This document shows positions 2-7,107 of a stretch of 62,283 nt of DNA, piece by piece. The stretch's first letter is position 1; each line of letters starts with the position of its first letter. The stretch spans positions 1 through 62,283 of the forward strand of contig NZ_PVLR01000043.1 in the NCBI RefSeq assembly GCF_002980625.1. The letters run 5' to 3'. Made by a program: the position numbers and the translations under genes. The notes below the pieces were generated by a model. That model did no database searches and was not told the origin of the DNA. It saw only the letters and a program-made list of their open reading frames with translations. Source of the stretch: Malikia spinosa. Its GTDB lineage: Bacteria; Pseudomonadota; Gammaproteobacteria; Burkholderiales; Burkholderiaceae_C.

Positions 2-1057
2 GAGACGATTGTGCAGGCGCCAGTCGAGCCGCACGTGATCGACAAGGGCATACCGACTGCCGGCCTAGTGGCCCATGTGATGGTGGCCAAGTATGCCGAC
101 CACCAGCCGCTGTACCGCCTGGAGCCCATCTTCGGGCGTGCCGGCTTCCCCGTCCCGCGCTCGACCTTGGCGCAGTGGGTGGGCACCTGCGGCGTGCGAC
201 TGCAGCCACTCGTCGATGCCCTCAAGGCCGTGGTGCTGCGCCACGGCGTGCTGCACGCCGACGAGACTCCGGTGCAGATGCTCAAGCCGGGCAACGGCAA
301 GACTCACCGCGCCTACCTCTGGGCTTACGCCGCCGGCGCCTTCGAAGACCTCAAGGCTGTGGTCTACGATTTCTGCGAGTCGCGCGCGGGGGTGCATGCG
401 CGCGAGTTCCTCGGCGACTGGCAGGGCACTCTGGTCTGCGACGACTACTCCGGCTACAAGGAGGGCTTCAAGTCAGGCCGGATCATCGAGGCCGGCTGCC
501 TGGCGCACGCCCGGCGCAAGTTCTTCGACCTGCACGCAGCCAACAAGAGCCAGATCGCCGAGTTCGCGCTCGAGCAGTTCAGCAAGATTTATGAGATCGA
601 GCGTCAGGTCAAGGACCTGGAAGCCGAGGAAAGAAGAACGATACGACAGCAGCAGACTCGGCCGCTGCTCGACGCTCTGCACGAGTGGATGACACTGCAG
701 CGACAGAAGGTGCCGGGCAACTCGGCCACCTCGAAAGCACTGGACTACAGCCTCAACCGCTGGGCTGCGCTGACGCGCTTCGTCGACGATAGGCAGCTAC
801 CCGTGGACAACAACTGGGTCGAGAACCGGATCCGTCCTATTGCCCAAGGAAGGGCTAATTGGCTCTTCGCAGGCTCGCTGCGTGCGGGCCAGCGCGCGGC
901 CGCCATCATGAGCTTGATCCAGTCGGCGCGCATGAACGGGCACGACCCGTATGCCTACCTCAAGGACGTCCTGACCCGGCTGCCCACGCACAAGGCCAGC
1001 CAGATCGAGGAGTTGCTACCGCATCGCTGGAAGTCTGCTGTCAGCACCGACGCCTGA
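2..1057 (+). CDS. tnpC: IS66 family transposase TnpC, 5' partial
   Basis: This is the catalytic C-terminal two thirds of an IS66-type DDE transposase. The frame is open to the window edge, with residues ETIVQAPVEP reading in from base 2, so the real start is upstream. The family hallmarks are in order. The HADETPVQML block carries the first catalytic Asp, the VCDDYSGYK block the second, then comes EAGCLAHARRKF. The VDNNWVENRIRP block carries the catalytic Glu and is followed by WLFAGS. The C-terminal tail (LPTHKASQIEELLPHRW) is typical of the family. No internal stops or frameshifts are visible, so this part looks intact. It is followed directly by the right end of the element. Confidence 0.93.
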   Translation, partial: ETIVQAPVEPHVIDKGIPTAGLVAHVMVAKYADHQPLYRLEPIFGRAGFPVPRSTLAQWVGTCGVRLQPLVDALKAVVLRHGVLHADETPVQMLKPGNGKTHRAYLWAYAAGAFEDLKAVVYDFCESRAGVHAREFLGDWQGTLVCDDYSGYKEGFKSGRIIEAGCLAHARRKFFDLHAANKSQIAEFALEQFSKIYEIERQVKDLEAEERRTIRQQQTRPLLDALHEWMTLQRQKVPGNSATSKALDYSLNRWAALTRFVDDRQLPVDNNWVENRIRPIAQGRANWLFAGSLRAGQRAAAIMSLIQSARMNGHDPYAYLKDVLTRLPTHKASQIEELLPHRWKSAVSTDA

Positions 1058-1073
1058 GCGTCAATCACCCTAC

Positions 1074-4000
1074 GTGCCGGCGGTCAAGTATGGGGTTAGC
1101 CGGACGCATACCGCGCTGCGTCGATTTGCGTATGACATTCGGGGGGCAATGGAACGAGCCACGGTGGTCATCACCGCTCGCCCTGTGCCCATCGATCGCC
1201 AGGCGTTCAAGGACATCCTGCCAGTGACCCCTCCAGTGCGGCATGAAGATTCGCAAGATGAGTTCATTCGCATCGCCATGGATGGCCCCAGCAAGACCAA
1301 GGACGACGGGCCGCCCTCCAGCCGAGAGGTCGAACTGCTACCTCTGACTGGCCCTCAGATCATGGAGTTCTCGCGGTCTCGAGGCGTTGAGGATCCAGAG
1401 GCCTTGCTGGCAGCCATCGACGCAAAGCACGCCAGAGAGTTCGCTCGCAAGCCGCAGGATCTGATCGAGCTCTGCGACGACTGGAGAGAACACGGAGTGC
1501 TTCGTGCGCACTTTGAGCAGATCAAATCTCATGTGCGCGCCCGCCTCGCCGCCCGACCCGATCGGCGCGAGAAGGCAGAGCTTCCGCCAGCGAAGGCGCT
1601 GGTCGGCGCACAGCGACTAGCGCTCGCAGTCATCCTGAGCCGGCGCCTGACCATCCGGTATAGCGCTGGATCGGATGGCGACTCGTCAGGCGCTGCACCG
1701 ATCGATTCGCGTGAGCTGCTGGCGGATTGGGGCCCCAATGAGGTGTTGACGCTTTTGGAGCGTCCCATCTTTGTCGAAGGCGGATACGGAAGGGTCCGGT
1801 TCCACCATCGGTCAGTGATGGAGTTTCTCGCCGCCCGCCAGATCCATGACCTGATCGAGGCAGGGCTGCTGGTCCAGTCGGCTGCTTGCCGCATGTTGTT
1901 CGCACTCACGGGTTCGAACGAGACGATCCTCAGGCCGTCGATGAGGCCCGTGGCCGCGTGGCTTGCCTTGCTCCGGCACGACATGTTCGAGCGGGTGGTC
2001 AAGATCGAGCCGGACGCCCTGCTTATCCATGGCGACCCTGAGTCGCTCACGGACCTCCAGCGGGAGCGCGCGTTGCTCGGCTACGTGGCGCGATACGGCA
2101 AGGGTCAGTGGCGTGGCCTTGAAGTGCCGAATCTGCAGGTGGCGCGGTTCGCGCAACTTGGCCTCGCTGGCACGGTGCAATCTGCCTGGGCTGCTGGCAT
2201 CGAGGCACCTGAGGTCCGGGAGCTTCTGCTCCGGCTTGTGAGCTCCGGCCACATGCAGGGTTGCGCGGACTTGGTTGCACACGTTGCAGCGGACGCATCT
2301 TGCAGCGATCGCGAGCGATTCGAGGCATTGCTAGCGCTTGCGGCCCTGAGCGATTCCCGCCTTGCATCGATGGTCGATGCGATCGTCAAGCTGGCGCCGG
2401 GGTGGTCCGAACGACTGGCGCGTTGGGTTGGGACGATGCTTTATCCGGAACATGTCACCGAAGCCCAACTGGTTCAGCTCTTGGCGAGGGTGCGCAGCGA
2501 AAAGAGGGATCTTGGGGGCTACGCAGACAGTGTCGCCCGGGTGATTCAGAAGGCCGACATGAGCCAAGCTCGCCTTGAAGCCTTGTTGCCTGATGTGCTT
2601 CGGCTTGCACGCGGGGGGCTGTCTGCGGTCGAGGAAGAGTTTCAAGAGGCCGATGGGCGGCTGGAAATGTCGAGCATCTTGCGCTCGCTGTGTCTCCGGT
2701 TGCTGGAACTTGGAAGCGTCAGCGAGACACTGATCGCGGCCTCGGTTCTTGCCAGGCGGTCGGCCGACGCTTCCTCCGGCTTGGGTAAGGGCAAGACGGA
2801 ACTGAGTGCGTTGCTCGACTCGCTGCCAAATGGTTGGCGACCGCAGGTCTTCGAGGCAGATCTGGCCTGTGTGGAAGCGCTTGGCGGCGATCGCAGTGCC
2901 AGTTACCGCCTGGTTCGCATCGTCTATGAAGGAGCACTGAACTACACGTTGGAGCGGGACGGCCGGTGGGTGCAGGCAGCGCTAGCTGACGTACAGATGT
3001 CGCCAGAGCGTCGAGCGGTTCTGTTGCACCTGGCCGCGCACCTCTACGCGATCGAGGGAGGCCTCAAGGACGGCGAGGGCGCTCTTCGCGGGGCCGTGGC
3101 AGATTCGACAGCGCTGAACGACGAGTTGAACTCGATCGTTGCGTCGAACCAGCCAAGCCCTGAGTTCCTGAAGATGCAAGAGGAGCAGCGGAAACGGCAA
3201 GAGCGCCAGGCCAAGAAGCGCACAGAAGAGCGGGATGCCTGGGCTCGGATCAGGCGCGAGCTGGCTGAGCAGCCCGCGCTGGCACTTGGGCCCGGTCGAA
3301 GGGACAGCACGATCTGGAACCTCTGGCTGGTCTTGCGCAAGCTGGGTCGAAATGGCGACGAAGGGCGATGGGATCGTGCGTTCTTGACCTCACAGTTCGG
3401 AGGCGACATCACAGACAGGCTGAGACTTGCCTTGATGGCCTACTGGCGCGGCTTGCGCCCGACGGTTCGATGTGAACGCCGGCGCGGAGAGGAAAACACC
3501 TATTTGGCGGTGTGGTCGATCGGCCTGATGGGCGTTTATGCGGAAGCGGAGGATCCCCACTGGGCTGCCAAGCTAAAGCGCAGTGAAGCGGAACTTGCTG
3601 CTCGCTATGCCTTGCTGGAGCTGAACGGCCTGCCCAGTTGGCTGGGCAGCCTAGCGAAGGCGCATCCCACCGATGTGGAAACCGTAGTTGGCGCCGAACT
3701 GCTCGATGAGCTACTCGATGCGGGCGGCGATTCAGGGTGGCACTCGATGGTGCTGCAGTCCCTGCGGAGCGGCACGCAGGATGTAGCACAGTTGCTTCTG
3801 CCTCGTCTCGTTGGCTGGCTCGCATGGTCGGGCTTGACATTGATGCAGCTCCCGCACTCGCCGTCGAACGAACAGAAGCTCTCCCTGGTTATTCGCGTGC
3901 TACTGGCGCACGCCGGCCCCGAGGTCAAAGGACCTTTGGAGGAACTGGCCGCGGCTCAGGTTCAGGCGGCCGGCACCGGCCCGTACTTGCTGTTCTGGCT

Positions 4001-5054
4001 GCCGATCTTGTTCTCGCTCGCGCCGTTGCGCGGTGTGGAGAGCATGCTTCCCCTTCTGGCAGCACTTCCCGTGGAGCCCAACGGGGCAGCAGTTCACATC
4101 ATTGGTTCACTGTTCAACGAGCGGACTGGCTCTGGATCGACCGAATGGGCCTCCAAGCTGGCTCCGGCGCAACTACTCCGGTTGACGCTTGAATTTCATT
4201 GTCACGTGAGGTCGCAAGATGACCTCGTGCATGACACCGTCTACTCGCCTGGGGCGCGTGACGCTGCTGAGAACGGGCGTCGGTACATCTTCGATGCGTT
4301 GATGAAGGCAAGCGGACCTGAGGCTCTCAGCGCTAAGTTGACTCTTGCGGCTGATCCACTCTTCGAGCGCTTGCGGGATCGCATCGCAGCATTGGCTCAG
4401 GAACGACTTGCTGCAGAGATCGACTCCAGCGCCTGGATACCGGCGGAGGTAACCACACTTTTGTCCCGTAAGGAGCTCTCACCCAAGACTACAACCGACA
4501 TGGCACAGCTGCTAGTCGATCGGCTGGACGACCTTCAGGAGCTGTTGCTCAGGGACACAGGACCACGAGCGGGTTGGGCGTCGATCGACGACGAGAACAC
4601 GCTGCGGCCCTTGATTTCACGCGAACTGGAAGTTGCATCGCGGGAGGCTTATACCGTGGATCAGGAAGCGGTGACGGCTGATGGCAAGGAGACGGACATC
4701 CGCCTTCGCGCGCTATCCGGCTACCAGGCCACCATCGAATTGAAGATTGGTGAGAAGGGACGATCCGCGCGAGAGCTGTGCGACACCATCGAAGAGCAGT
4801 TGGTCAGGAAATACATGGCTCATCGCGACGCGCGTACAGGCTGTCTACTTGTCTCCGTAGCTGACCCGGCCAGGTACTGGCTACACCCCGACACAGGCGA
4901 ACGAATTGATCGCTTTGGCCTGCAGACGCTCCTTCAGGCCAAGGCCGATGTTGCTCAGCGGCAACTCGGTGGGGAGGCACGGGTTCTCGCTCGCGTCCTT
5001 CATCTTGTGCAGCGCCTTTCTACGGAAAAGCAGGCTTCTGGCACTGCGCGATGA
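1074..5054 (+). CDS. STAND/NACHT-type NTPase with C-terminal PD-(D/E)XK nuclease-like domain, 5' truncated by IS66
   Basis: The open frame gives 1326 residues, but the GTG at 1074 lies inside the IS66 end and the first 13 codons are IS-derived; host sequence starts at about 1112. The surviving protein begins at the strand carrying VVITARP, which looks like the sensor region after Walker B in NACHT/STAND ATPases, so the P-loop and any N-terminal effector are missing. Next come the helical part (LTGPQIMEFSRSRG), a winged-helix end with FHHRSVMEFLAA (F243 to A254), and a long helical-repeat-like region. A charged coiled-coil stretch lies near residues 700-730. The C-terminus has D1208, E1222 and K1224 in TDIRL...IELK, the D-x13-ExK layout of PD-(D/E)XK nucleases, followed by EEQLVRKYM. 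Base use is less G/C-biased than the metabolic genes to the right, which suggests transfer. Family knowledge points to an anti-phage STAND sensor; that role is inference. As it stands the gene is broken. Confidence 0.72.
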   Translation: MPAVKYGVSRTHTALRRFAYDIRGAMERATVVITARPVPIDRQAFKDILPVTPPVRHEDSQDEFIRIAMDGPSKTKDDGPPSSREVELLPLTGPQIMEFSRSRGVEDPEALLAAIDAKHAREFARKPQDLIELCDDWREHGVLRAHFEQIKSHVRARLAARPDRREKAELPPAKALVGAQRLALAVILSRRLTIRYSAGSDGDSSGAAPIDSRELLADWGPNEVLTLLERPIFVEGGYGRVRFHHRSVMEFLAARQIHDLIEAGLLVQSAACRMLFALTGSNETILRPSMRPVAAWLALLRHDMFERVVKIEPDALLIHGDPESLTDLQRERALLGYVARYGKGQWRGLEVPNLQVARFAQLGLAGTVQSAWAAGIEAPEVRELLLRLVSSGHMQGCADLVAHVAADASCSDRERFEALLALAALSDSRLASMVDAIVKLAPGWSERLARWVGTMLYPEHVTEAQLVQLLARVRSEKRDLGGYADSVARVIQKADMSQARLEALLPDVLRLARGGLSAVEEEFQEADGRLEMSSILRSLCLRLLELGSVSETLIAASVLARRSADASSGLGKGKTELSALLDSLPNGWRPQVFEADLACVEALGGDRSASYRLVRIVYEGALNYTLERDGRWVQAALADVQMSPERRAVLLHLAAHLYAIEGGLKDGEGALRGAVADSTALNDELNSIVASNQPSPEFLKMQEEQRKRQERQAKKRTEERDAWARIRRELAEQPALALGPGRRDSTIWNLWLVLRKLGRNGDEGRWDRAFLTSQFGGDITDRLRLALMAYWRGLRPTVRCERRRGEENTYLAVWSIGLMGVYAEAEDPHWAAKLKRSEAELAARYALLELNGLPSWLGSLAKAHPTDVETVVGAELLDELLDAGGDSGWHSMVLQSLRSGTQDVAQLLLPRLVGWLAWSGLTLMQLPHSPSNEQKLSLVIRVLLAHAGPEVKGPLEELAAAQVQAAGTGPYLLFWLPILFSLAPLRGVESMLPLLAALPVEPNGAAVHIIGSLFNERTGSGSTEWASKLAPAQLLRLTLEFHCHVRSQDDLVHDTVYSPGARDAAENGRRYIFDALMKASGPEALSAKLTLAADPLFERLRDRIAALAQERLAAEIDSSAWIPAEVTTLLSRKELSPKTTTDMAQLLVDRLDDLQELLLRDTGPRAGWASIDDENTLRPLISRELEVASREAYTVDQEAVTADGKETDIRLRALSGYQATIELKIGEKGRSARELCDTIEEQLVRKYMAHRDARTGCLLVSVADPARYWLHPDTGERIDRFGLQTLLQAKADVAQRQLGGEARVLARVLHLVQRLSTEKQASGTAR
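1090..1111 (+). repeat. IS66 right terminal inverted repeat
   Basis: The segment starts ATGGGGTTAGCC and ends GGACGCATAC. Read on the other strand it starts GTATGCGTCCGG, close to the general IS66-family end (GTAAGCG...CCCC). It lies where IS66 right ends usually lie, a few tens of bases after tnpC. The exact outer base is inferred from the family, because the left repeat is not in the window. Confidence 0.7.
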
Positions 5055-5072
5055 CCTGATACGAACACCTCT

Positions 5073-6569
5073 ATGGCAGAACGCACTGTTGGCCCCCATG
5101 AGTTTTGGCTTCAGACCTGTGGCCTCAATACCCATCGTCGCGGCACGAGCTACGCTCGTTTAGATACGCCATGGAATGCCTTCACAGCTGACGGTGGCAA
5201 GCTCGTCTGCACTATTTGGGTTGACGAGATCGTCGAAGTTCATGACCCAGAGTTGGGCCACGCTCGTCGCTTCGTGAAGATGGGCGGGCGCTCTCGACGA
5301 TGGAAGGGCGTTGGGATGCAACACGGGCAATATGCGCGCGCCAACCTGGACAAAGCCGTCGCTGAGAAGCTACCAATATTCGGCTTTGAGGCCGAGCCTA
5401 ACAAGGCCGCCTTGGAGCGCGGAGAGAGGTCGGTCAAGCACTTCTACCTCGACCGGACACACCAGCTGCAGGGTCGAATTGGCCTCAGTCTGTACGAACT
5501 GGAGAAAAAGCTCCACATCGAAGACGCTTTCAGGAAGCGTGGAATCGCCGATGAAGAGGATCCGAATCTGCCCGCATCACTCTTCGAGTTGGTGGGCACG
5601 ACGATCGAACCACCAGCAGCGGGGGATTACCAGATCGAGGACGCGAGAGAAGAACACGAGGTCGATCTGCCGTTAGAAGGAAACCAGTCTGCCGATGTGT
5701 ATGCCCGCAAGGCCCTGCCAATACTTGTGGCGCACGTGCTTCAACAGCAAGACGGCGTAATGGCGCCAATCACATACCGCCGCCTCGCTGAACTCCTTGG
5801 CCGGCGGAACAGGCACGGCGACCCCTGGGCGAGAGGACTGGGCTTCGTATTGGGTCGGGTGACTGAGCTGATTGACGGCGTTCGCAGCCGATTGACTGAG
5901 CCACCGCCGTTTCTCACGAGCATCGTCGTTCTGTCGAGCGGCCCAAATGTGGGCTTACCCGACAAAGGGGTGAGTGGTGTATGGCCTGGGTACGAGACGA
6001 TGTCCAGGGAGGAGAAGCGAGCCAAGCTCGCTGCCGAGTTTCAGCGCATCCTCGCCTACCGTAGCCGGTGGAACGAGGTGCTGCGCCTCGCAGGCCTGCC
6101 AGTGATCGAACCGCCAGTCGGCTCGAATGGAATCCCCGTTCCAGGTGGTTGGGGCGGAGGGGAGTCAGAAGCACACTTGGCGCTGAAGCTCTATGTGCGC
6201 GATCACCCCGAGTTGGTTGGTGCGCGAGCTGACTGGGATGCCTGGGTCGAGTACGCCCTGCGCTCCGCAGACGAGTTGGAGGTCATGTTCTTATCGGATC
6301 GGGTCTGGATCGGGGTCGAAGTGAAGTCAAGGACCTCCGATCGGAACCTTGCCGATTATGAGCGCGGCATTTACCAGGTCGTAAAGTACCGCTCCATCCT
6401 TGAGGCACAGGCTCTCGTCGATTTTCCGGATGCTCAACCGGAGATTCGCGTAGTGCTGCTCCTTGAGCGAGAACTTCCTGCCGTATATCGCGCTTTGGCA
6501 GCTCATTTGCGGGTGACGGTTATTGATGGCATTGTCCCTACCAATGCTCAGATAGAGTGCGATGCCTGA
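5073..6569 (+). CDS. Uncharacterised protein with C-terminal PD-(D/E)XK nuclease-like domain
   Basis: A 498-residue protein starting 18 bp after the STAND gene on the same strand, so probably in one operon with it; no clear Shine-Dalgarno is seen. The N-terminal 120 residues (HEFWLQTCGLNTHRRG onward) form a compact basic domain that I do not recognise. Residues about 230-330 look like a winged-helix-type module (PITYRRLAELLGRR, then LTSIVVLSSGPNVGLP). The C-terminal domain has SADELEVMF (D400 to E403) followed by VEVKSR (E416, K418) and GIYQVVKYRSIL. This is the beta-hairpin plus ExK plus helix pattern of PD-(D/E)XK enzymes. A DNA- or RNA-cleaving partner of the neighbouring NTPase is a reasonable inference, not shown. 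There are no transmembrane segments or signal peptide. Confidence 0.65.
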   Translation: MAERTVGPHEFWLQTCGLNTHRRGTSYARLDTPWNAFTADGGKLVCTIWVDEIVEVHDPELGHARRFVKMGGRSRRWKGVGMQHGQYARANLDKAVAEKLPIFGFEAEPNKAALERGERSVKHFYLDRTHQLQGRIGLSLYELEKKLHIEDAFRKRGIADEEDPNLPASLFELVGTTIEPPAAGDYQIEDAREEHEVDLPLEGNQSADVYARKALPILVAHVLQQQDGVMAPITYRRLAELLGRRNRHGDPWARGLGFVLGRVTELIDGVRSRLTEPPPFLTSIVVLSSGPNVGLPDKGVSGVWPGYETMSREEKRAKLAAEFQRILAYRSRWNEVLRLAGLPVIEPPVGSNGIPVPGGWGGGESEAHLALKLYVRDHPELVGARADWDAWVEYALRSADELEVMFLSDRVWIGVEVKSRTSDRNLADYERGIYQVVKYRSILEAQALVDFPDAQPEIRVVLLLERELPAVYRALAAHLRVTVIDGIVPTNAQIECDA

Positions 6570-7107
6570 GTCGGAAAGTCGGTAATTAGACCTATAAAGA
6601 CGCGGGTGAAAAGCGGATGTTGCGAGCTCGATCTTTTGGCCGCAGTCGCCCCGATGGCCAGTCCAAATTCCCGCACCTGTGGCCATCCCAAATGCCCCCA
6701 GGCAAGGCTGGCCGCATTATGGCGGCTCGGTCCTCGACGAATCGGGCGCGCCACTTCGAAACCATCTGCCGTGTCACACGCTGACGGCGCGCAACGTCAG
6801 CGCGTGAGTAGCTCGCGCTCGGCTTCGCTCAACACCAGTTCTGCCTTGAGTCTTCCTCGCATTGGTGCCCTCGTGATGTGCATAGAGGGTGTGCAGAATT
6901 TGTGTAAGTGGACAATCCACCGCAGGCGCGCGCCGGCTTGCCCGTAAGACTGCTTCCGGTGGCATCAGTCTTCCAGCGGAACAATACGAAAGACTGCTCC
7001 CTGCCTAAACCGGCCATCGGCTGAACCATTCTGGCGGTAAGCTTGTAGCTGGGAGCCGACACCCAGAGTCGATTTGTCAAACTGATCCATACCCTGGATG
7101 GACATTG
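6570..7107. other. Intergenic region with transposon debris
   Basis: About 540 bp between the nuclease-like gene and the inositol transporter terminator, without an intact gene. It holds the IS630 transposase remnant (6734-6862, minus) and a short perfect inverted repeat, AAGACTG at 6946-6952 with CAGTCTT at 6966-6972. Short open frames on both strands in 6829-7080 show no family resemblance I can defend. This stretch marks the border between the accessory left edge and the metabolic island. Confidence 0.6.
6734..6862 (-). pseudogene. IS630-family transposase remnant
   Basis: On the minus strand an ATG at 6862 opens MRGRLKAELVLSEAERELLTR and then hits a stop. In another frame the reading continues RRQRVTRQMVSKWRARFVEDR. 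Both pieces match the N-terminal helix-turn-helix region of IS630-type transposases. The normal roughly 25-residue linker between them is deleted and the frame is shifted. Nothing recognisable as the DDE domain follows. It is therefore a decayed fragment, not a working element. Confidence 0.7.

What the first reader, a model, noticed from the sequence alone, without database searches (positions are those of the whole stretch)
1112..6569. Candidate two-gene STAND-nuclease plus nuclease system, uncharacterised
Seen: a STAND/NACHT-type ATPase fragment with a long helical region and a C-terminal D-x13-ExK motif (D1208, E1222, K1224), followed 18 bp later by a 498-aa protein with its own C-terminal nuclease-like motif (E403, E416, K418) and an unrecognised N-terminal domain. 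Known: STAND NTPases of the Avs/bNACHT kind sense phage proteins, usually with the effector at the N-terminus. A C-terminal nuclease domain together with a second nuclease-like partner is an unusual layout. Inference: a phage-defence pair that I cannot match to a named system.
Basis: partly seen in the sequence, partly recalled or inferred. Interest (0 to 1): 0.8.

Follow-up and report, generated by a model that had tools for sequence, protein, structure and literature searches.

The report
IS66-split HyoA antiphage gene plus nuclease
The "unknown" defence gene is a copy of HyoA, an already named bacterial antiphage protein, cut in two by a jumping gene, and the nuclease gene behind it belongs to a separate family that was mostly seen without HyoA, so this is largely ordinary.

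Summary
ORF 1074-5054 is the 3' nine-tenths of a STAND/NACHT gene; P2 (5073-6569) follows after 18 bp. The first gene has a name: NCBIfam NF058534, antiphage HyoA (1195 bits, cut-off 1200, profile 124-1430). An IS66 element cut it; profile positions 1-128 lie at the edge of contig C45 of the same genome, with the same 8-bp sequence at both junctions. The C-terminal E...D...ExK...Q motif is identical in 13 of 13 aligned HyoA rows that span it. P2's C-terminal part is a PD-(D/E)XK nuclease by fold. The pair is not a general system: of 18 HyoA loci examined outside this genome one carries P2, and of 22 P2-family loci examined one carries HyoA, the same locus (L003). Most likely: a broken copy of a known NACHT-nuclease defence gene beside an independent restriction-like nuclease. 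P2's first 195 residues stay unidentified. Residue 403, D in 19 of 19 aligned relatives, is E in this P2, so P2 may be decaying too.

The parts
2..1057 (+). IS66-family transposase, 5' end cut by the contig start
   Evidence: NCBIfam NF033517 transpos_IS66, 384 bits
1089..1111 (-). terminal repeat of the IS66 element (right end)
   Evidence: 22 of 28 bases equal to the left end on contig C45; pattern found at 3 places in the genome (C42, C45, C74), 0 in the reversed control
1112..1119 (.). 8-bp target-site duplication, also present at the C45 junction
1112..5054 (+). 3' part of hyoA: rest of the NACHT region, long helical region, C-terminal nuclease-like domain; the first 128 profile positions are on contig C45 147-530 (-)
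   Evidence: NF058534 1195 bits, profile 124-1430; C45 piece profile 1-128, 145 bits; alignment A2
4593..5003 (+). C-terminal PD-(D/E)XK-like domain of HyoA (ORF residues 1174-1310; E1198, D1208, E1222, K1224, Q1242)
   Evidence: motif 13/13; helix, three strands, helix, strand, helix, strand in the model; Foldseek hits weak
5055..5072 (.). 18-bp spacer, same length in L003
5073..6569 (+). P2, 498-aa nuclease protein
   Evidence: 84% identical to L003 2940-4436; one Pfam hit far under cut-off (XisH, E 0.24); none in PADLOC, NCBIfam, PHROGs or PDB sequences
5073..5657 (+). P2 N-terminal region, residues 1-195, seen only in this protein and in L003
   Evidence: no plasmid hit at E 0.1; in the fetched loci the next best match after the window copies and L003 has E 0.062; model mostly unreliable
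5673..6140 (+). P2 helical, winged-helix-like DNA-binding region (inferred)
   Evidence: model helices 204-223, 235-241, 256-269; weak PF01035 match in 1 of 20 family members, E 0.11
6162..6542 (+). P2 PD-(D/E)XK nuclease domain (E364, D400, residue 403, E416, K418, Q435, K438)
   Evidence: Foldseek Card1 6xl1, XisH 2inb, Cdn1, Can2
6570..6586 (.). end of the DNA block shared with L003
   Evidence: blastn block 2274-6586, 87% identity

Best explanation
The locus is a disrupted copy of hyoA, a NACHT-type antiphage gene that stands without P2 elsewhere, followed by an independent restriction-like nuclease gene. Intact HyoA would work as a STAND sensor: the helical region recognises a phage-derived signal, the N-terminal NACHT module binds ATP and oligomerises, and the C-terminal PD-(D/E)XK domain is activated and cuts DNA, stopping the infection. 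In this genome IS66 sits between the Walker A/B part and the rest, so HyoA is probably dead. P2 is a stand-alone endonuclease that reads DNA with its N-terminal and winged-helix-like parts and cuts with its PD-(D/E)XK domain, as a type IV-like or moron-type exclusion enzyme. Shown: gene identity, insertion, motif conservation, P2 fold, lack of general co-occurrence among the loci examined. Inferred: trigger, oligomerisation, DNA as target, P2's mode of action.
For: NF058534 match. The 5' piece on C45 carries SEAGAGKT (Walker A, my reading) and FLDSIDEL (Walker B-like, my reading), with an 8-bp duplication at both junctions; the empty-site frame is open for 1438 aa. Active-site residues 13/13 in HyoA and E416/K418 20/20 in P2. 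P2 fold. Of 8 neighbours of other HyoA copies that I picked by eye, 7 match PADLOC models: type I RM genes and a further protein (weak match) in L003, ThsB-like TIR in L057, RmrA in L031, HEC-05 in L055; 1 (in L036) does not (not an enrichment test). P2-family proteins were found without HyoA in 21 of 22 loci. dN/dS between window and L003: 0.111 for HyoA (906 codons), 0.155 for P2 (498 codons).
Against: The fragment alone scores 5 bits under the HyoA cut-off. Foldseek gave no match at E <= 0.001 for the HyoA C-terminal model, and unrelated folds were mixed into the list. No HyoA antiphage paper was found in the library, so its activity rests on the NCBIfam name alone. Identical spacing and a shared block ending 17 bp behind the P2 stop in L003 speak for some link between the two genes. 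For P2, nothing tested shows activity or target.
Confidence: 0.72

Rival explanations
1. HyoA and P2 form a lineage-specific two-gene defence module: HyoA senses, and P2 is a second effector or a regulator that adds target specificity.
For: Same order, orientation and 18-bp gap in window and L003; the two loci share 2274-6586 and diverge 17 bp behind the P2 stop, so the genes moved as one block; both under purifying selection.
Against: Only one independent relative. The 17 other outside HyoA loci examined have no P2, including the nearest outgroup, the P. aeruginosa plasmid copies (59-60% identical; L053 and L058, two plasmids of one strain), and 21 of 22 P2-family loci examined have no HyoA. 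Defence islands bring unrelated genes together (L003 also carries a type I RM system next door).
Confidence: 0.2
2. P2 is the endonuclease half of a restriction-modification pair whose methyltransferase is lost or elsewhere.
For: A relative of the nuclease part in Rhizobium lies between a 'BPTD_3080 family restriction endonuclease' gene and a methyltransferase gene (L106); a winged-helix-only relative lies two genes behind a methyltransferase in Rhodovastum (L104); methyltransferase-like ORFs (labels recalled) lie within some kilobases of relatives in L059, L065 and L070.
Against: No methyltransferase hit in the two neighbours tested here (ORF 6606-6944, no family; the next gene is ABC-permease-like); not a full survey. 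No DNA methyltransferase is annotated within 8 kb of the relatives on the Chryseobacterium and Falsirhodobacter plasmids (PLSDB's gene table is incomplete, and Falsirhodobacter has an rRNA methyltransferase there).
Confidence: 0.12
3. The 1326-aa fragment is still a working protein started inside or behind the IS.
For: The frame is open from 1074.
Against: It lacks the P-loop, which is on C45; other HyoA copies are also broken.
Confidence: 0.04

Closest known systems
HyoA, NCBIfam NF058534 'NACHT domain-containing antiphage protein HyoA'
   Same: profile match over all but the part cut off by IS66, which lies on C45; groups with other HyoA rows in the tree
   Different: split by IS66; followed by P2, seen at only one other HyoA locus
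EruA, NCBIfam NF058535
   Same: remote similarity over residues 85-1254 (157.9 bits)
   Different: far under its cut-off of 1000 bits
bNACHT25/bNACHT32 (PMC12169576, passages seen)
   Same: NACHT module plus PD-(D/E)XK DNase
   Different: there the nuclease is N-terminal and the C-terminus senses; in HyoA the nuclease-like domain is C-terminal
Avs STAND nucleases (recalled; Avs4 8dgf appears as a weak Foldseek hit, E 0.15)
   Same: STAND ATPase with a nuclease
   Different: no PADLOC match; effector at the other end (recalled)
XisH, Card1/Can2, NucS/SfsA-type PD-(D/E)XK nucleases
   Same: nuclease fold of P2; XisH, Tox-REase-9, NucS_C and SfsA profile hits in P2 or relatives, none shown to pass a cut-off
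   Different: no cyclic-oligonucleotide-sensing domain identified; other domain order

Membership tests
HyoA (NF058534) | whole-protein score over the curated cut-off (1200 bits) | tested here: inconclusive
   window fragment 1195 bits; separate 5' piece 145 bits; the protein is split, and the pieces were scored apart
HyoA (NF058534) | NACHT P-loop at the N-terminus | tested here: met
   SEAGAGKT in the C45 piece, residues 46-53; P-loop label is my reading
HyoA (NF058534) | conserved C-terminal domain up to profile position 1430 | tested here: met
HyoA (NF058534) | antiphage activity | not testable with these tools
   only the NCBIfam name says so
Avs / bNACHT with N-terminal effector | effector domain in front of the ATPase | tested here: not met
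   the P-loop starts about 46 residues from the start and the nuclease-like domain is at the C-terminus; no PADLOC hit
two-gene HyoA-P2 system | pair recurs across relatives | tested here: not met
   1 of 18 outside HyoA loci (L003); in 3 of the 18 (L038, L040, L041) only a 5' part of hyoA is present, so the next gene could not be judged
PD-(D/E)XK superfamily: P2 | core fold and E/D-ExK motif | tested here: met
PD-(D/E)XK superfamily: HyoA C-terminus | core fold and motif | tested here: inconclusive
   motif and order of secondary elements fit; no Foldseek hit at E <= 0.001
restriction-modification | cognate methyltransferase beside P2 | tested here: inconclusive
   none in the two neighbours scanned; not a full survey; some relatives do lie near methyltransferase genes

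The most novel reading that the evidence does not exclude
A lineage-specific dual-nuclease module in which an inverted-layout NACHT sensor (HyoA, nuclease at the C-terminus) works with a second, DNA-reading PD-(D/E)XK protein that carries an unidentified N-terminal sensor domain.
Probability: 0.18. Interest if true: 0.5.

Novelty: new member of a known kind. Interest (0 to 1): 0.3.

Why it matters
It assigns an apparently unnamed defence gene to HyoA, shows that HyoA-type NACHT proteins carry a conserved nuclease-like active site at the C-terminus (the reverse of the bNACHT layout described in PMC12169576), and separates it from a second nuclease family (P2 C-terminal part) that had no family hit shown over cut-off in the libraries searched and was found on plasmids, in genomes and on viral contigs. 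The HyoA layout gives a direct test: does a C-terminal nuclease serve as effector in a NACHT protein?

Tried and rejected
Profile searches of P2: Pfam gave one hit far under cut-off, PADLOC, NCBIfam, PHROGs and PDB sequences none; the P2-family profile against PDB sequences gave 4 hits at E 0.23-0.7 (spectrin, jouberin), taken as chance. HyoA against PDB sequences: 10 hits, all PIN1 entries at E 0.23-0.77, taken as chance; its C-terminal profile gave 5 hits at E 0.1-0.41 (a ribosomal protein, superantigen-like proteins), taken as chance; the whole-length profile gave none at E 0.1. HyoA against PHROGs: one weak hit of unknown function, E 0.025. The two nuclease domains showed no detectable relation by profile comparison (A5 against A3, Prob 0.2). 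An empty site beside the ABC permease in family members was sought; 21 of 25 genomes matched, own included, but matches outside this genome were at most 41% identical, so no comparison was possible. Megablast of the locus against plasmids: no match. Literature: HyoA was searched by name and no antiphage HyoA paper was listed; the EruA paper listed concerns an E. coli regulator (listing and start of abstract only). Three further listings on NACHT/STAND effectors (none, 3 papers, 7 papers) led only to PMC12169576 (passages seen); PMC13092281 was searched for terms, and its main text holds neither 'hyo' nor 'eru' at a word start. Phage records: no P2-family hit.

Full report
What is there. ORF 1074-5054 and ORF 5073-6569 lie on the + strand, 18 bp apart. 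To the left is an IS66 transposase cut by the contig start (NF033517); to the right, about 600 bp on, an ABC-permease-like gene on the other strand (best NCBIfam hit MglC, 250 bits, under its cut-off of 386). The ORF's own GTG at 1074 lies inside the IS end; homology to relatives starts at the junction, 1112.

The first gene. NCBIfam names it antiphage HyoA: 1195 bits against a cut-off of 1200, covering profile positions 124-1430 of 1430. The missing start is in the same genome: contig C45, 147-530 on the minus strand, matches profile 1-128 with 145 bits. Both contigs end in IS66 termini (22 of 28 bases alike) and share the 8-bp sequence CGCGCTGC at the junctions; across the empty site the frame is open for 1438 codons. 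A third copy of the terminus occurs on contig C74, so the element is probably multi-copy, which would explain the assembly break. The C45 piece holds SEAGAGKT (the P-loop, my reading) and the FLDSIDEL segment; the insertion follows them, so the fragment in the window lacks the ATP-binding loop.

The C-terminal domain. E1198, D1208, E1222, K1224, Q1242 and Y1247 are identical in 13 of 13 HyoA rows that span the region (14 rows aligned; the C45 piece does not reach it). The model of ORF residues 1041-1326 (mean pLDDT 75, 8 rows) gives helix, three strands, helix, strand, helix, strand, with D1208 just before the second strand and ExK in the third. Foldseek against the PDB gave no hit at E <= 0.001. 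The weak list contains many entries that I recognise (recalled) as PD-(D/E)XK enzymes (EcoO109I, SfsA, Hjc, McrBC, Cas4-like ACE1, Cdn1, Avs4, 2vld, FokI) but also unrelated folds (GRAS domains, ARL5, RAD51). I take the domain as a PD-(D/E)XK nuclease on motif and topology, short of proof by fold. In bNACHT25/32 the DNase is N-terminal and the C-terminus senses (PMC12169576, passages), so HyoA is inverted in layout.

The second gene. P2 has no family hit over cut-off. Residues 200-491 are modelled with pLDDT mostly about 90, apart from a weak stretch at 348-362; residues 1-199 are mostly unreliable. Foldseek against the PDB gave 2 matches at E <= 0.001: an R2 retrotransposon protein, poorly aligned (rmsd 21.9), and Card1 (6xl1, E 6.3e-4, probability 1.00); Cdn1, XisH (2inb, TM 0.59 by target) and Can2 follow. 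Predicted viral proteins gave 5 matches at E <= 0.001: two 'uncharacterized', two without a name, one 'Endonuclease Like Protein'. E364, D400, E416, K418, R431, G432, Q435, K438 and Y439 are identical in 20 of 20 rows; residue 403 is D in 19 of 19 relatives and E only here, a possible sign of decay (inference). The region before the nuclease looks like a winged helix; one of 20 members hits the MGMT DNA-binding domain weakly (E 0.11). The modules recombine: in L081 the winged-helix-like part is joined to an HNH_2 domain (E 2.3e-14); in L071 the nuclease has another N-terminus.

Do they belong together? P2 as a query found 2 of 369 genomes of the class sample and 4 of 399 of the order sample, the window's own genome included in both; in the other genomes only its C-terminal part matched. 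A scan of genome contigs with P2 gave one relative, L003; viral contigs gave none with P2 itself. A profile of the C-terminal part found 11 of 398 genomes of the phylum sample, own included, 5 of the 11 over part of the profile only, and 14 viral contigs, several near-identical. One relative as query gave 7 plasmid records (3 over at least 80% of it) and no phage record (P2 itself, also none). HyoA was found in 20 of 369 genomes of the class sample, own included, 5 over cut-off, with 1 of 14 control genomes ringing below cut-off, and in 55 plasmid records, 9 over at least 80% of the query.

Surroundings were examined for 18 HyoA loci outside this genome: L003, 11 of the 19 other genomes (the 8 weakest were left out) and 6 of the 55 plasmid records. 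Some of the 18 score below the HyoA cut-off (L036, L037, L057 and fragments). One (L003) has P2; in 3 (L038, L040, L041) only the 5' part of hyoA is present; L053 and L058 come from one strain. Of 22 P2-family loci (L003, the 14 viral contigs, 4 genome loci and 3 plasmid records), 1 (L003) has HyoA; the genome loci and the further plasmid records were not in this count. The loci are 4-20 kb long, so distant linkage would be missed. In a tree of 13 rows window and L003 are sisters, with the P. aeruginosa plasmid copy next (100/100 support; the program warned of unlike letter make-up for four rows, window and L003 among them, and of long branches); that copy has no P2. Window and L003 share one block, 2274-6586, 87% identical, which stops 17 bp behind the P2 stop, with dN/dS 0.155 (P2) and 0.111 (HyoA). 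So the two genes moved together at least once and both were under selection, but no wider pairing is seen.

Reading. A known NACHT antiphage gene, broken here, beside an independent restriction-like nuclease. What is not known: the HyoA trigger (no HyoA paper found in the library), the cut nucleic acid, and P2's N-terminal third.

Noticed in passing
L037 5273-9205 and 9221-9559: A HyoA homologue whose C-terminal nuclease is missing (match 1-1243) and replaced by a tail INFNDPVMVQAIGNGNTIHNNQ; the next gene, 15 bp on, starts with a like motif (FNFNAPVTTQVVGDGATIINQGQ), reminiscent of RHIM/BASS amyloid signalling motifs (recalled). A second relative of the partner protein is on another contig of that genome (L100); none in the 41 other genomes of its order sample. 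Suggests an exchangeable C-terminal effector.
   Followed up: partly
L003 1-195, L038, L039, L041, L053: HyoA copies are often broken: 5 of 18 outside loci have truncated or split frames (assembly errors not excluded); L003 runs into a transposase-like sequence (label recalled).
   Followed up: partly
window P2 residue 403 (6279-6281): Residue that is D in 19 of 19 relatives is E in this copy.
   Followed up: no
L062, L063, L064, L065, L069, L051: P2-type nucleases on viral contigs or among phage-like genes, some apparently beside lysis, tail or integrase genes (labels recalled); L062 and L065 copies are split in frame.
   Followed up: partly
L081, L071, L079: Module shuffling: winged-helix-like part with an HNH_2 domain; nuclease part with two other N-termini.
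   Followed up: no
L106 2437-3360: A P2-nuclease relative lies between a restriction endonuclease gene and a DNA methyltransferase gene on a Rhizobium plasmid.
   Followed up: no
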